Shown here one piece after another: positions 30,484 to 35,253 of a stretch of DNA of 64,000 bases; within the stretch, counting starts at the first letter, position 1, and every line of letters starts with the position of its first letter. Source of the stretch: Candidatus Brocadia sp. WS118. GTDB taxonomy: Bacteria; Planctomycetota; Brocadiia; Brocadiales; Brocadiaceae. The stretch covers positions 1-64,000 of the forward strand of contig PHFX01000005.1 in NCBI GenBank assembly GCA_007618135.1. Direction: 5' to 3'. The notes under the pieces are model-generated. The model saw nothing but the letters and a program-made list of their open reading frames with translations, made no database searches and had not been told where the DNA came from. Position numbers and translations under genes: made by a program.

Positions 30484-30623
30484 CACAAATATATTTACTG
30501 AGTTGGAGAGAGGAGACAACCTCATGGCGGGTTCAAGTTGCAAATCTGAACTCTCAAGAAAATACCTAATTGACATCAGTTTGTTTCTTACCCTTCTCAG
30601 AACACAGACTTCAAATTTTAATA

Positions 30624-30652
30624 TTGACATTTTCAGGGTGTATTTTTACACT
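30624..30652 (+). promoter_or_regulatory. Promoter of the toxin-antitoxin pair, giving a leaderless message
   Basis: TTGACA (30624-30629), a 17-base spacer and TACACT (30647-30652) place the transcript start at about 30659-30660, the A of the panA ATG. No ribosome binding site is present upstream of that ATG, consistent with a leaderless transcript. Confidence 0.5.
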
Positions 30653-30659
30653 TACAAAC

Positions 30660-31238
30660 ATGAATACAAAAAATATGCAAATCATTAAGTTTATTGTTGA
30701 AAGATTGTCAGGCAAGCTCGGACGTATACACCTGATGAAGCTGATTTACCTGGCTGACTATCATTCACGCAGACTCTTTGGATGGCCTGTTTCAACTTTT
30801 CATTACCATTGGTGGCAGTACGGCCCTTTTGATAAAGAGTTTTACACCTGTATCGAAAATCTCGGCAATACGTATATCAGAGAAGAAGCAGTCTCTTTCC
30901 CTTCTTGTAAAGGCTACGTGTTTCATGATACTCCAATAAGAATAAAATATGACAATCTTTCTGAGCAAGAACTTTACATACTGGAATATGTAATAAGAAA
31001 TTATGGGAAAGTCGGTTTGCAGACATTATTAGAAGAAGTCGTATATAAAACAGAACCAATGGAGGAGTTAACAAAAAAGAATGCCTATGGGGAAATCCTC
31101 CCGATGGAAATGATAGATAACGTTGATAAGACACTTTATGAAGGTCTCGACCCAAAAGGAATAATTAATGGAGAAAAGTCCGTCCAGGAAGGGAGAACGC
31201 GCTCATTAGAAGAGGCATTCAATGCCTTACAGAGTTGA
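30660..31238 (+). CDS. Panacea-domain antitoxin (SocA/DUF4065-like)
   Basis: The start at 30660 (MNTKNMQIIKFIVERL, 192 aa) is chosen because the Panacea fold starts there; the frame upstream is not protein-like. The hallmark pattern LMKLIYLADYHSRRLFG and HYHWWQYGPFDKEF is clear. Panacea proteins are promiscuous antitoxins (PanA) that neutralise different toxins encoded next to them. It is on the opposite strand to the hsd genes and overlaps the following toxin gene by 17 bases. The neutralisation of that partner is inferred from the layout. Confidence 0.82.
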   Translation: MNTKNMQIIKFIVERLSGKLGRIHLMKLIYLADYHSRRLFGWPVSTFHYHWWQYGPFDKEFYTCIENLGNTYIREEAVSFPSCKGYVFHDTPIRIKYDNLSEQELYILEYVIRNYGKVGLQTLLEEVVYKTEPMEELTKKNAYGEILPMEMIDNVDKTLYEGLDPKGIINGEKSVQEGRTRSLEEAFNALQS

Positions 31239-31500
31239 AATAGCAGATACAGAGGAAAATAACACATTTCTTAAAAACATTCCAAAAGACATCCTTACAA
31301 AATTATCTAAACATTTACAACTTTTAGGTGAACATCCCTTTTTAGGACGAAGCATAGAAGCCCCTATCCCGGCATACCTTTATAGTTTTCAAATAACACA
31401 CGCCGAACAAAACCACCAATTTATTGTGTCGTATAAGATCAACGAAGGGAATGAAACCATTTATATTACAAGTTTTGGTCGAACAATTATTAAGACTTGA
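31222..31500 (+). CDS. ParE/RelE-like toxin partner of the Panacea antitoxin
   Basis: The 92-aa product begins PYRVEIADTEENNTFLKNI, and its core HAEQNHQFIVSYKINEG followed by ETIYITSFGRT follows the RelE/ParE fold: strand, two helices, then a sheet that ends in an arginine. RelE-type members cut mRNA on the ribosome and ParE-type members poison gyrase; which applies here cannot be told. The start lies inside the end of the antitoxin gene. The stop is 20 bases before the REP element at 31518. No transcription terminator is visible besides that hairpin. Confidence 0.68.
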   Translation: MPYRVEIADTEENNTFLKNIPKDILTKLSKHLQLLGEHPFLGRSIEAPIPAYLYSFQITHAEQNHQFIVSYKINEGNETIYITSFGRTIIKT

Positions 31501-31517
31501 AAAACCAAAAATTCCAA

Positions 31518-31593
31518 TCGGGTGGCAGGAGGAAACTCCTGCCACCACTTCCTCTTTCCCGTGCTGTCAGGAGTTTCCTCCTGACAGCAACCG
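31518..31593. repeat. Composite REP element A (two facing hairpins)
   Basis: GGTGGCAGGAG (31521-31531), loop GAAA, CTCCTGCCACC (31536-31546) is followed by GCTGTCAGGAG (31563-31573), loop TTTC, CTCCTGACAGC (31578-31588). On opposite strands both hairpins share CAGGAGGAAACTCCTG. It abuts the 3' end of the RAYT gene and also follows the toxin gene. Confidence 0.85.
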
Positions 31594-31594
31594 C

Positions 31595-32134
31595 TTACCA
31601 CTCCATATCCACAGGGATTGCCGATGTGCCAACAGATAGATAATCTCTAGCGCTGGAGTAAAACCAATCCTCCGGCACGGAAACCAGTCCTTTTCTCACT
31701 GGATTTGCATGAATATAGTTGATTTTCGTGATCATCGTCTCCCGCCTGTTTAAAACCAGGTCATCAAATCTACTCTTCCACAATTTAAAGACCTGTCCTT
31801 TTGCCCCTTCGGCGTTTGCCTTAAGTATGTTTAAAAGTTCATGCTCACCTTCTTGTTCCAGCGCTTTTCTGATCTGGACAGAGGTAAACTTCTTGAAATC
31901 CCGCATAAAATCAGAGATAGCAGAGCCTTGATCAGGCCACAAGACCAAATGCACATGGTTAGGCATGAGGCAGTAAGCGATCAATTTGCAGATATACTTA
32001 TTTTTGCAAAAGACCAGGCTTTCGCAGAGGATATCGAAGTATGCTTTACTTTTAAATACCGCTGCCCATTCAACAACGGTTGTTGTGATAAAGTACGGAT
32101 AACCAGAATAGTTCCAACGATTTCTTAGTCCCAT
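31595..32134 (-). CDS. REP-associated tyrosine transposase (TnpA_REP, Y1/HUH)
   Basis: The 179-aa protein starts at ATG 32134 (MGLRNRWNYSGYPY), with GGAG 5 bases upstream; the frame's extra upstream codons are REP sequence. The two HUH histidines His60 and His62 lie in MPNHVHLVL, and the nucleophile Tyr140 in INYIHANPVRKGLV, as in IS200-like single-strand transposases. RAYTs bind and process REP hairpins, and are domesticated rather than self-moving. Here three REP elements lie within 2.2 kb, one at each side of the gene. All catalytic residues are present. Confidence 0.93.
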   Translation of the reverse strand: MGLRNRWNYSGYPYFITTTVVEWAAVFKSKAYFDILCESLVFCKNKYICKLIAYCLMPNHVHLVLWPDQGSAISDFMRDFKKFTSVQIRKALEQEGEHELLNILKANAEGAKGQVFKLWKSRFDDLVLNRRETMITKINYIHANPVRKGLVSVPEDWFYSSARDYLSVGTSAIPVDMEW

Positions 32135-32146
32135 AGTAACTCCAAT

Positions 32147-32276
32147 CGGGTGGCAGGAGAAGATCATCAAAGTGGCAGGAGGAAACTCCTGCCACCACGG
32201 GAACGGGAAACTCCTGCTGCAACGGGAACCCGGAAGCTTCCCCGTGCTGTCAGGAGTTTCCTCCTGACAGCAACCG
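32147..32276. repeat. Composite REP element B (expanded)
   Basis: It begins TCCAATCGGGTGGCAGGAG as element A does, is interrupted, then contains GTGGCAGGAG-GAAA-CTCCTGCCAC (32172-32195), a degenerate piece GGGAAACTCCTGC, and GCTGTCAGGAG-TTTC-CTCCTGACAGC (32246-32271). It lies immediately upstream of the RAYT start, overlapping its ribosome binding region, and downstream of hsdS. Confidence 0.85.
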
Positions 32277-32322
32277 CGGTTCAGGATGACAATTGCTGGA
32301 CAACCTGCAATCTATAAGAAAA

Positions 32323-33594
32323 TCAAGAAAACTTCAACTCCTTAACCCTGATTTGCCCTGTCATCAGGTGGTGGAGCATTGACTTAAAAAGAGATTGAAG
32401 CGAAACTGCTTTCGTCTTGCAAAAATGAATCTTATTGTCTATCTTTATAAACATCTCTGAGATTTCTGCCTGTTCTTTACATGAGGGGAATGGAATTAGT
32501 GTTTCTCCAAGCACAGTTTTGCTTAATCTTTGCCTTCCAGTTGATCCTTCCATCTTACCTGTTAACATAGACCTGACGTCATTTTTTAATAAATAGTAAT
32601 ACAAATAATGTTTGTTACTTATCCTTTCTTTTTCGTTGATAGGAATGACCTCTGTAGTGGCAAATCCAAACTTATGTTCAAAATCTACGATTGCTTGCTT
32701 CCCATTTTCAAAAGAGGGTGTTATTTTTGCAATCAACAAATCACCGTTCTCAATATAAGTTCCACTTGATAAATCATCAGCATCTCTTGATTCAAAATCC
32801 CTTACGAATAAATTGTCATCAGGTATCAACTCCATAGGAATAAAGGGAACATGCTTGGTTTTCTTCCAGTTAATTCCTCTTGGTTTACTTGTAAAATCAT
32901 ATACTTCCTCAATCCTTTTCACTTCCCAACTCTTCGGCACTTTTCCAATCTCTGTCTCTTTCTGCGCTTCGCCACGCAACCCCTCGGTAAAGAATTTCTG
33001 CATGAGCGCCTTCTTGAGTTCGGTGGTCGTCTGAATAATCTTTTCTTGTGTCTCTATGGCGGATTGGATTATAGATAAAATCTTTGCGATATTGCTTTGC
33101 TCATTTAACGGTGGATAAGGCATTTTCGTCTTTTTAACATCATCATCCCTAACGGCTGGATAACTCGCTCCTGTCTGATGTTTTGCTATCTCTTTAACAA
33201 AGAAATTTGTTAGCAAATACTGATAGAGAAACACAAAATCAAGTTTATTTTTATCTACTCTCAACACACAAAATGCTGTGCTACAATACTCATTGTTGTA
33301 TTCCTGACTTATCTTTGCAATCCTTTTCAAAGTAGGTCTCACGGTAGCGAATATTACATCATTTTTGTAAACAACTTTTCTTGCCCTGCCTGGGGCATCT
33401 TTACCGAGATAATCTTGATAACTTATTACTGAAAAGGTTTGATTAGAAACACTTGAAACATCAATGTATTTTATCTTCTTTGTGGGTTTTTTTTGAGGAT
33501 TTCTTGTCTCAGTATCTAAAACCAAATCTTTTATTTCACGCACTTCCCAATCTTCTGGCAATGTTCCTATGTCTGTTTGTTTGAAGCCTGTCAT
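32323..33594 (-). CDS. hsdS: Type I restriction-modification specificity subunit
   Basis: HsdS recognises the bipartite DNA target for both methylation and cleavage. The 423-aa protein has two target-recognition domains, each followed by the conserved coiled-coil spacer: TRD1 (about 8-170) then NEQSNIAKILSIIQSAIETQ, and TRD2 (about 225-375) then KEQAEISEMFIKIDNKI. The boundary W motifs (PEDWEVREI, PKSWEVKRI) are duplicated, as expected. Both TRDs look complete. Target sequence cannot be predicted. hsdM starts transcription upstream; a REP element (33610-33694) lies in the gap between them. Confidence 0.94.
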   Translation of the reverse strand: MTGFKQTDIGTLPEDWEVREIKDLVLDTETRNPQKKPTKKIKYIDVSSVSNQTFSVISYQDYLGKDAPGRARKVVYKNDVIFATVRPTLKRIAKISQEYNNEYCSTAFCVLRVDKNKLDFVFLYQYLLTNFFVKEIAKHQTGASYPAVRDDDVKKTKMPYPPLNEQSNIAKILSIIQSAIETQEKIIQTTTELKKALMQKFFTEGLRGEAQKETEIGKVPKSWEVKRIEEVYDFTSKPRGINWKKTKHVPFIPMELIPDDNLFVRDFESRDADDLSSGTYIENGDLLIAKITPSFENGKQAIVDFEHKFGFATTEVIPINEKERISNKHYLYYYLLKNDVRSMLTGKMEGSTGRQRLSKTVLGETLIPFPSCKEQAEISEMFIKIDNKIHFCKTKAVSLQSLFKSMLHHLMTGQIRVKELKFS

Positions 33595-33609
33595 TTAATA
33601 TCCTATATT

Positions 33610-33694
33610 CGGGTGGCAGGAGGAAACTCCTGCCACCACTTCCACCACGATACCACCTCCCCGTGCTGTCAGGAGTTTCCTCCTGACAGCAACC
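33610..33694. repeat. Composite REP element C between hsdM and hsdS
   Basis: GGTGGCAGGAG (33612-33622), loop GAAA, CTCCTGCCACC (33627-33637), then a linker and GCTGTCAGGAG (33664-33674), loop TTTC, CTCCTGACAGC (33679-33689). It is nearly identical to element A apart from the linker, and fills the gap of 117 bases between the hsdM stop and the hsdS start. Confidence 0.85.
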
Positions 33695-33711
33695 GTACTG
33701 GGAACCGACAA

Positions 33712-35253
33712 CTAACAACCAATTTTCTTCAAAACTTCCTTCAAATCCTTATCAATCCTTTTTGCCTCGTCTTCCAACTCGTAGAGTTCTTCCACAATCT
33801 CAGCAATAGGTCTGTGTTCTTCTGCGTCTGCGGTATGGATATAACGAGAAGGAGAGATATTATAATCGTTCTTGATAATCTCGTCTTTACTCACTACCTT
33901 GCTAAACTTGTCTATCTCTTTCCACTTTAGAAATGCATCCACAATCTTCTTTTGTCTTGCCTCCGGGATAAAGTTCTTGGGGTCGCCTTTTTCAAAGTCC
34001 AAAGAGGCATTGACTAAAAACACCTTGTCTTTTTTTGTCTTGTTTCTGTTTAAGAATAAGACAATGCCCGGCGCTGTCGTATTGTAAAAGAGGTTTTCTG
34101 GCAGATATAAAACGCCCTCAACCAAGTCCTGTTCAATAAACCATTTCCTGATTTCTTTTTCCTTGTTGCTTGAGGCGTTTCCCGAACCCCTTGAAACCGC
34201 GCCCGTATCTAACACAATGGCTGCCCTGCCGTTGTCCTTCATGCTGGCAAGGACGTGTTGCGCCCAACCCCAGTCAGCGCTGCTTGTGGGTGGTATGCCT
34301 GCCTTGAAGCGGTCTAATTCATCATTCTCGTAATCCTTTTCCACGAATGTCTTTTGATTCCACATGGGATTAGTAACCACCAAATCGAACTGCTCAAGTT
34401 TATTGCCGTCTTTGAACCTGGGGATTTTCATGGTATCGCCAATCTCAATCCTGCCCTCCATATCGTGGATTACCATATTCATATTCGCCATCGCCCAGGT
34501 AGTGCCAATAAATTCCTGTCCATAAAGTTTAAGGGGCGCATACCTCCTCAAAGACTGCTTTTTCATCTTCTCATCCAATACCAACTCGCACTTAATCAGA
34601 AGACCTGCTGAACCACAGCATGGGTCGTATATCTCCATACCTGATTCAGGGTCTAATATCTTCGCCATAATCATACCCACTTCGCCGGGGGTATAGAATT
34701 CCCCTGCGCTTTGGCCTCCGCCCTCTGCAAACTTGCGGATAAGGTATTCATAACTTCTGCCGATGATGTCAGGCTCAACATCATGTAATCCCAGGCGTTT
34801 CTGGCTAATCTTTTCTATCAGCTTGATCAAACTATCTTCTGAAATATCCCTTTGACCGTGAGTTGTGGCGTTGAAGTCTATGCGGTCTATAATGCCCTGT
34901 ATCCGGGAATTAAATTTAGCAATATCCCGCATAAGACTGGTCAGTTGCTCGCCAACCTTGTCAGTTAGGGTTCTGATAACCGACCATGTATCGTCCTTTT
35001 CAGGTTCTTTTGCTTTTAACGGCAGGTAGAAACGAACAAGTTTATGGTCTTTTTCTATAAGTTTGTGCGCCTTGGTTCTGCTACCCACTTGTTTTGCAAT
35101 GCGGTTTATTTCATCATCAAAGACGTCACAAAGCCGTTTTACAAAGACCAGAGGCAGGATATAATCCTTGTACTTGGGGGCATCTTTCTCTCCGCGTATC
35201 ACGCAGGCAGCATCCCAAAGCCACGCTTCTAACGATTTTTCTTCGATTGGCAT
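33712..35253 (-). CDS. hsdM: Type I restriction-modification methyltransferase subunit
   Basis: HsdM transfers a methyl group from S-adenosylmethionine to adenine N6. The 513-aa protein has a helical N-terminal domain (1-150), motif I DPCCGSAGLL (near residue 209, SAM binding), and motif IV NPMWNQ (near 294), in place of the usual NPP(F/Y). The NPMW variant occurs in this HsdM subfamily and is not by itself a sign of inactivity. The C-terminus is helical. It is the first gene of the locus; the 600 bases upstream contain its promoter but no consensus match that I trust. Confidence 0.95.
   Translation of the reverse strand: MPIEEKSLEAWLWDAACVIRGEKDAPKYKDYILPLVFVKRLCDVFDDEINRIAKQVGSRTKAHKLIEKDHKLVRFYLPLKAKEPEKDDTWSVIRTLTDKVGEQLTSLMRDIAKFNSRIQGIIDRIDFNATTHGQRDISEDSLIKLIEKISQKRLGLHDVEPDIIGRSYEYLIRKFAEGGGQSAGEFYTPGEVGMIMAKILDPESGMEIYDPCCGSAGLLIKCELVLDEKMKKQSLRRYAPLKLYGQEFIGTTWAMANMNMVIHDMEGRIEIGDTMKIPRFKDGNKLEQFDLVVTNPMWNQKTFVEKDYENDELDRFKAGIPPTSSADWGWAQHVLASMKDNGRAAIVLDTGAVSRGSGNASSNKEKEIRKWFIEQDLVEGVLYLPENLFYNTTAPGIVLFLNRNKTKKDKVFLVNASLDFEKGDPKNFIPEARQKKIVDAFLKWKEIDKFSKVVSKDEIIKNDYNISPSRYIHTADAEEHRPIAEIVEELYELEDEAKRIDKDLKEVLKKIGC

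What the first reader, a model, noticed from the sequence alone, without database searches (positions are those of the whole stretch)
30624..31500. Leaderless Panacea antitoxin / ParE-like toxin pair nested inside a type I restriction locus
A PanA-type antitoxin and a RelE/ParE-like toxin overlap by 17 bases. They lie on the strand opposite to hsdR/hsdS, whose genes they separate. The promoter TTGACA-17-TACACT puts transcription at the start codon itself, so the message would have no leader and no ribosome binding site. Panacea antitoxins are known to pair with many toxin folds, and this combination would be a candidate pair. A toxin-antitoxin unit inside a restriction locus could guard its loss.
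Basis: partly seen in the sequence, partly recalled or inferred. Interest (0 to 1): 0.6.

Follow-up and report, generated by a model that had tools for sequence, protein, structure and literature searches.

The report
Panacea antitoxin with RelE/ParE-fold toxin
A small two-gene toxin-antitoxin unit sits inside a DNA-restriction gene cluster of an anammox-type bacterium; it is a real, conserved and mobile member of an already described kind, and relatives show that it and the restriction genes can each survive without the other.

Summary
panA (30660-31238) carries a Panacea domain (PF13274, E=8.9e-13). The 92-aa partner (31222-31500) has a RelE/ParE fold: AlphaFold pLDDT 90, and the top eight PDB matches are RelE, RelE2 and HigB2, although its Pfam ParE score is below cut-off. 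The genes overlap by 17 bases, and the same overlap recurs in all five related loci found in Brocadiales genomes, at 48-93% toxin identity. Both genes are under purifying selection.

The pairing is not new: ParE-type toxins were already listed among Panacea partners (PMC8832971). It is a new member of the PanAT kind.

Nesting in a type I restriction locus is real but not obligatory. The cassette (30609-31514) is 93.6% identical in a relative whose chromosome is otherwise about 76% identical, so it moves. In that relative the pair survives intact beside only the last codons of hsdS, at the 3' end of the RNase P RNA gene. In another relative the restriction genes remain and only 24 toxin codons are left. 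So no strict "guarding" is seen.

The leaderless reading is geometrically correct but unproven; related loci show both leaderless-like and leadered starts.

RelE's catalytic residues appear to be missing, so the toxin's target is open.

The parts
30609..31514 (+). Mobile unit: block 93.6% identical to L004 3272-4177 with unrelated sequence on both sides; contains promoter, panA and toxin
   Evidence: blastn; chromosomal background between the same genomes about 76-77%
30624..30629 (+). -35 hexamer TTGACA
   Evidence: sequence; identical in L004
30647..30652 (+). -10 hexamer TACACT, 17 bases after the -35 and 7 bases before the ATG
   Evidence: sequence
30660..31238 (+). panA: antitoxin with Panacea domain, 192 aa, with a conserved C-terminal tail of about 46 residues
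   Evidence: PF13274 E=8.9e-13, 49.6 bits vs cut-off 25.7; start supported by homologues; tail alignment
31210..31215 (+). AAGAGG, Shine-Dalgarno-like site for the toxin inside panA
   Evidence: sequence
31222..31500 (+). Toxin gene, 92 aa, RelE/ParE fold; 17-base overlap with panA
   Evidence: PF05016 E=0.002, below cut-off; AF2 pLDDT 89.9, pTM 0.79; Foldseek top 8 = RelE, RelE2, HigB2; dN/dS 0.14
31518..31594 (.). REP-like palindromes bordering the unit; further copies at 32168-32277 and 33609-33696
   Evidence: the repeat finder
31595..32170 (-). REP-associated tyrosine transposase (RAYT)
   Evidence: NF047646 E=1.6e-31; PF01797
27506..30421 (-). hsdR of the host restriction locus
   Evidence: TIGR00348 E=2.5e-145
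32323..33594 (-). hsdS
   Evidence: PF01420 E=2.7e-30
33712..35253 (-). hsdM
   Evidence: PF02384 E=1.5e-94

Best explanation
The pair is a type II toxin-antitoxin operon of the PanAT kind, antitoxin first. PanA is made from a strong sigma-70-type promoter. The toxin is translated by coupling or re-initiation from a start codon inside the end of panA. PanA binds and silences the RelE/ParE-fold toxin, perhaps through its conserved C-terminal tail, and loss or inactivation of PanA frees the toxin to arrest growth. The unit is a roughly 0.9-kb mobile cassette. In Brocadiaceae it has travelled with a type I restriction island and here sits between hsdR and hsdS, but it is not functionally tied to it. 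Shown by computation: the genes, domain, fold, conservation, mobility and separability from the restriction genes. Inferred: toxicity, neutralisation, coupling and the role of the tail.
For: PF13274 match over cut-off. RelE/ParE fold from a confident model, with RelE (2khe), RelE2 (3g5o) and HigB2 (5ja8, 8a0x) as the first eight PDB matches. Weak but concordant ParE-clan matches in three independent homologues. Two-gene unit with the identical 17-base overlap in L004, L032, L006, L036, and in L034 where the toxin is truncated at codon 35 and the antitoxin is intact. All six members of this PanA subfamily found among 75 class genomes are followed by this toxin (one of them truncated), and the toxin is not found alone in 392 phylum genomes apart from one marginal hit with an internal stop. 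A distant pair in G131 (L044) again has Panacea (E=1.2e-4, just under cut-off) followed by a ParE-like protein. Purifying selection on both genes. Cassette 93.6% identical versus about 76% for the chromosome of the same two genomes.
Against: No toxicity or rescue data exist. The toxin's Pfam scores are all below curated cut-offs and no PDB sequence match was found. The antitoxin structure model is poor (pLDDT 49). RelE's catalytic residues are not evident, so the activity is unknown (weak alignment).
Confidence: 0.8

Rival explanations
1. The pair guards the restriction locus: losing the hsd region kills or arrests the cell, so the toxin-antitoxin unit keeps the restriction genes in place.
For: Location between hsdR and hsdS; the order restriction genes, pair, REP, hsdS tail is shared by the window, L004 and L005, so they travelled together. 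Precedent for a toxin-antitoxin pair in a type I locus: tvrAT in the pneumococcal tvr locus (PMC6265443).
Against: L004 keeps an intact pair but only the last ~53 codons of hsdS; L005 keeps hsdR, hsdS and RAYT but only the last 24 toxin codons. The pair occurs next to queE/queC, oxidoreductase and phosphate genes without restriction genes. tvrAT itself did not behave as an addiction module when tested.
Confidence: 0.12
2. An alarm coupled to restriction: Panacea acts as a sensor and frees the toxin when a phage blocks the restriction enzyme, as PrrC does next to EcoprrI.
For: Position between hsdS and hsdR resembles prrC; PrrC is silenced by a linked type I enzyme and activated by a phage anti-restriction factor (PMC2610378); Panacea has been proposed as a sensor domain (PMC10440598).
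Against: Most relatives of the pair have no restriction enzyme beside them; the pair has its own antitoxin and lies on the opposite strand.
Confidence: 0.05
3. Not a toxin: the small protein is a regulator or chaperone partner of PanA that merely shares the RelE/ParE fold.
For: RelE-type catalytic residues are not evident; Pfam scores are below cut-off.
Against: Gene order, overlap, patchy distribution, mobility and selective loss of the toxin with the antitoxin kept (L034) are all typical of toxin-antitoxin pairs.
Confidence: 0.12

Closest known systems
PanAT systems (Panacea/DUF4065 antitoxin with diverse toxins; Kurata 2022 PMC8832971, Ernits 2023 PMC10440598)
   Same: Panacea domain over the Pfam cut-off; two-gene operon, antitoxin first; patchy, mobile; ParE already listed among partner domains
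   Different: This toxin subfamily is below Pfam and NCBIfam cut-offs and seen here only in Planctomycetota; 17-base overlap; lies in a restriction island
RelE/ParE superfamily toxins (RelE, RelE2, HigB2)
   Same: Predicted fold and length; PDB top matches
   Different: About 11-18% identity; RelE catalytic residues not evident; antitoxin is not RelB, ParD or HigA
tvrAT in the pneumococcal SpnIV type I locus (PMC6265443)
   Same: A toxin-antitoxin pair among hsd genes
   Different: Phd-Doc type, with a recombinase that shuffles hsdS; addiction not seen in tests
PrrC / EcoprrI (PMC2610378)
   Same: Growth-arresting protein genetically linked to a type I restriction enzyme
   Different: tRNA nuclease held by the restriction enzyme itself, no dedicated antitoxin
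SocAB (type VI, SocA has a Panacea domain)
   Same: Panacea domain in the antitoxin
   Different: NCBIfam SocA score 29.5 versus cut-off 190; toxin unrelated to SocB by the searches made

Membership tests
PanAT toxin-antitoxin systems | Panacea (PF13274) domain over curated cut-off in the antitoxin | tested here: met
   49.6 bits vs 25.7
PanAT toxin-antitoxin systems | Two-gene locus within 100 bases conserved in at least two species | tested here: met
   17-base overlap in the window and five related loci, one with a truncated toxin
PanAT toxin-antitoxin systems | Partner is toxic and PanA neutralises it by direct binding | not testable with these tools
   needs growth assay and pull-down
RelE/ParE superfamily | RelE/ParE fold | tested here: met
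   AF2 pLDDT 89.9; first eight PDB matches RelE, RelE2, HigB2; best E 9.8e-4, TM 0.61-0.67 for the top two
RelE/ParE superfamily | Curated Pfam score PF05016 | tested here: not met
   19.1 bits vs 23; homologues likewise below
RelE ribosome-dependent RNases | Catalytic residues K52, K54, R61, R81, Y87 of E. coli RelE (from general knowledge) | tested here: inconclusive
   Local alignment places I68 at R61; by strand order L53/S55 stand at K52/K54; the protein ends before Y87; alignment probability very low
ParE gyrase inhibitors | Inhibition of DNA gyrase | not testable with these tools
   needs biochemical assay
SocAB type VI | NCBIfam SocA cut-off | tested here: not met
   29.5 vs 190 bits
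Leaderless mRNA | Transcript 5' end at the start codon | not testable with these tools
   Promoter geometry fits; same in L004, TTGCAA-17-TATTAT-6-ATG in L034, but leadered in L006 and L036
Addiction module guarding the restriction locus | Restriction genes and pair kept together | tested here: not met
   L004 keeps pair without hsd; L005 keeps hsd without pair

The most novel reading that the evidence does not exclude
A Panacea antitoxin acts as a sensor beside a type I restriction enzyme and releases a non-RNase RelE/ParE-fold toxin when restriction fails, a PrrC-like second line built from a different toxin and antitoxin.
Probability: 0.05. Interest if true: 0.7.

Novelty: new member of a known kind. 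Interest (0 to 1): 0.32.

Why it matters
It adds a conserved, mobile subfamily of Panacea-neutralised RelE/ParE-fold toxins in anammox-type Planctomycetota, with six or more natural variants for testing which part of PanA neutralises the toxin. It also offers natural experiments on whether toxin-antitoxin pairs guard restriction loci: relatives have lost one partner while keeping the other.

Tried and rejected
Sequence match of either protein to PDB chains: none at E<=1. Close relatives in viral contigs, phages and plasmids: none. AlphaFold of PanA with six homologues: poor, not used. Search for a known antitoxin tail in the PanA C-terminus: no significant Pfam, NCBIfam or PDB match; a short EGRT..L.E similarity to the distant G131 PanA is marginal. 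Genome-wide leaderless signal: no -10 peak close to start codons in 335 genes, while Shine-Dalgarno-like motifs are 3.5-fold over control. The consensus TTGACA set showed an excess (12 of 29 versus 3 of 24 open an ORF of 60 aa or more, p=0.03), which did not repeat for TTGACB (5 of 30 versus 8 of 24). The upstream TTG start (222 aa) was rejected because homologues start at the ATG.

Full report
OBSERVATION. The two ORFs, the 17-base overlap, the promoter hexamers and their spacing, and the opposite orientation to hsdR/hsdS are exactly as described. The locus is hsdM-hsdS-(RAYT)-[pair, opposite strand]-hsdR. hsdR, hsdS and hsdM are confirmed by Pfam and NCBIfam.

ANTITOXIN. PanA matches PF13274 at E=8.9e-13 (49.6 bits, cut-off 25.7). 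It is not SocA by NCBIfam (29.5 vs 190 bits). The start at 30660 is supported by homologues, whose proteins begin within a few residues of it. A C-terminal tail of about 46 residues is conserved in six members. By analogy with other PanA proteins in which an added element does the neutralising (PMC10440598), it is a candidate toxin-binding element; this is inference.

TOXIN. The family is weakly like ParE in Pfam: PF05016 at E=0.002, under cut-off, with homologues giving PF05016 or PF15781 at 6e-4 to 0.03. AlphaFold2 with a five-sequence alignment gives pLDDT 89.9 and pTM 0.79. Foldseek against the PDB puts RelE of Thermus (E=9.8e-4), RelE2 of M. tuberculosis and HigB2 in all of the first eight places. 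So the fold claim is supported. The residues that make E. coli RelE a nuclease do not appear to be kept, but that alignment is weak, so the target stays open: gyrase, ribosome or something else.

A CONSERVED PAIR. In 75 genomes of the class, 23 have Panacea proteins; six carry this PanA subfamily, and each of the six is followed by this toxin gene, one of them truncated. The overlap is 17 bases every time. In G211 the toxin is cut at codon 35 while the antitoxin is intact. A search of 392 Planctomycetota genomes with the toxin profile found only these, one distant member (G131) that again follows a Panacea protein, and one marginal hit with an internal stop. dN/dS against the nearest relative is 0.17 (antitoxin) and 0.14 (toxin).

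A MOBILE CASSETTE. Window 30609-31514 is 93.6% identical to L004 with unrelated sequence outside, while a 5.9-kb chromosomal block of the same two genomes is 76% identical. Elsewhere the pair lies beside queE/queC (L006), 2-oxoacid oxidoreductase genes (L036), phosphate transport genes (L038), or SIR2- and RecG-like genes with an MNT-HEPN pair nearby (L037).

RELATION TO THE RESTRICTION GENES. Two relatives act as natural experiments. In L004 (record title Candidatus Brocadiaceae; the same contig as G230) the pair sits between arcC and the RNase P RNA gene. A 114-bp copy of the RNase P RNA 3' end and its terminator abuts it on the left, and the last ~53 codons of hsdS and a REP lie on its right. 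Three sister genomes have arcC and rnpB directly adjacent, i.e. the empty site. So this is read as a decayed restriction island that kept the pair. In L005, hsdR, RAYT and hsdS are present in the window's order beside arcC (hsdS runs off the contig end), but only the last 24 toxin codons remain, directly after a REP, with an MNT-HEPN pair in the gap. Restriction genes and pair therefore travelled together but are separable in both directions, which argues against strict guarding. A comparable nested pair, tvrAT in the pneumococcal tvr locus, did not act as an addiction module when tested (PMC6265443).

LEADERLESS? The geometry is right, the same in L004, and similar in L034 (TTGCAA-17-TATTAT-6-ATG). 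L006 and L036 have leaders of about 20-45 bases. In a sample of 335 genes of this genome there is no peak of -10 boxes next to the ATG, and Shine-Dalgarno-like motifs are common (125 vs 36 in the control interval). Strong-consensus promoters set at an ATG do occur (29 in the genome; 12 open an ORF of 60 aa or more), and among those opening an ORF of 50 aa or more are HigB, TumE, MazE and Arc-like genes besides panA. The excess did not repeat with a relaxed -35. Toxin-antitoxin transcripts are predominantly leaderless in M. tuberculosis (PMC8485053), so the reading is plausible and, if true, has precedent. It remains untested.

NOVELTY. ParE was listed among Panacea partner domains in 2022 (PMC8832971). 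This is a new, well-conserved subfamily of a known kind in an interesting place.

Noticed in passing
L004 3157-5188 (G230 contig C453); empty sites L192, L201, L206: A roughly 1.4-kb island carrying the pair and an hsdS tail abuts a 114-bp duplicate of the RNase P RNA 3' end; three sister genomes have the empty arcC-rnpB site. Suggests rnpB 3' end as an integration site in Brocadiaceae.
   Followed up: partly
L005 5199-5890 and 5985-6072: An MNT-HEPN pair stands between hsdR and hsdS in a relative, next to the 3' stub of this toxin that directly follows a REP palindrome: one toxin-antitoxin unit apparently exchanged for another inside a restriction locus.
   Followed up: partly
window 31518-33696: RAYT transposase with at least three clusters of REP-like palindromes between hsdR and hsdM; REPs border the pair and the stubs in relatives.
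   Followed up: partly
L046, L048, L057, L074 (genome contigs C2, C4, C227, C278 at 88.75 kb): HigB-HigA, an Arc-like protein, TumE and MazE also have TTGACA-N16-18-TANNNT-N5-8-ATG starts: a possible excess of toxin-antitoxin genes among leaderless-type promoters in this genome; small numbers, not repeated with a relaxed -35.
   Followed up: partly
L038 6425-7148 (G211): Intact PanA followed by a toxin cut off at codon 35: an orphan antitoxin.
   Followed up: no
L037 2570-10378 (G233): The pair lies in a defence-like neighbourhood with a SIR2-domain protein, a RecG-like fragment and an MNT-HEPN pair.
   Followed up: no
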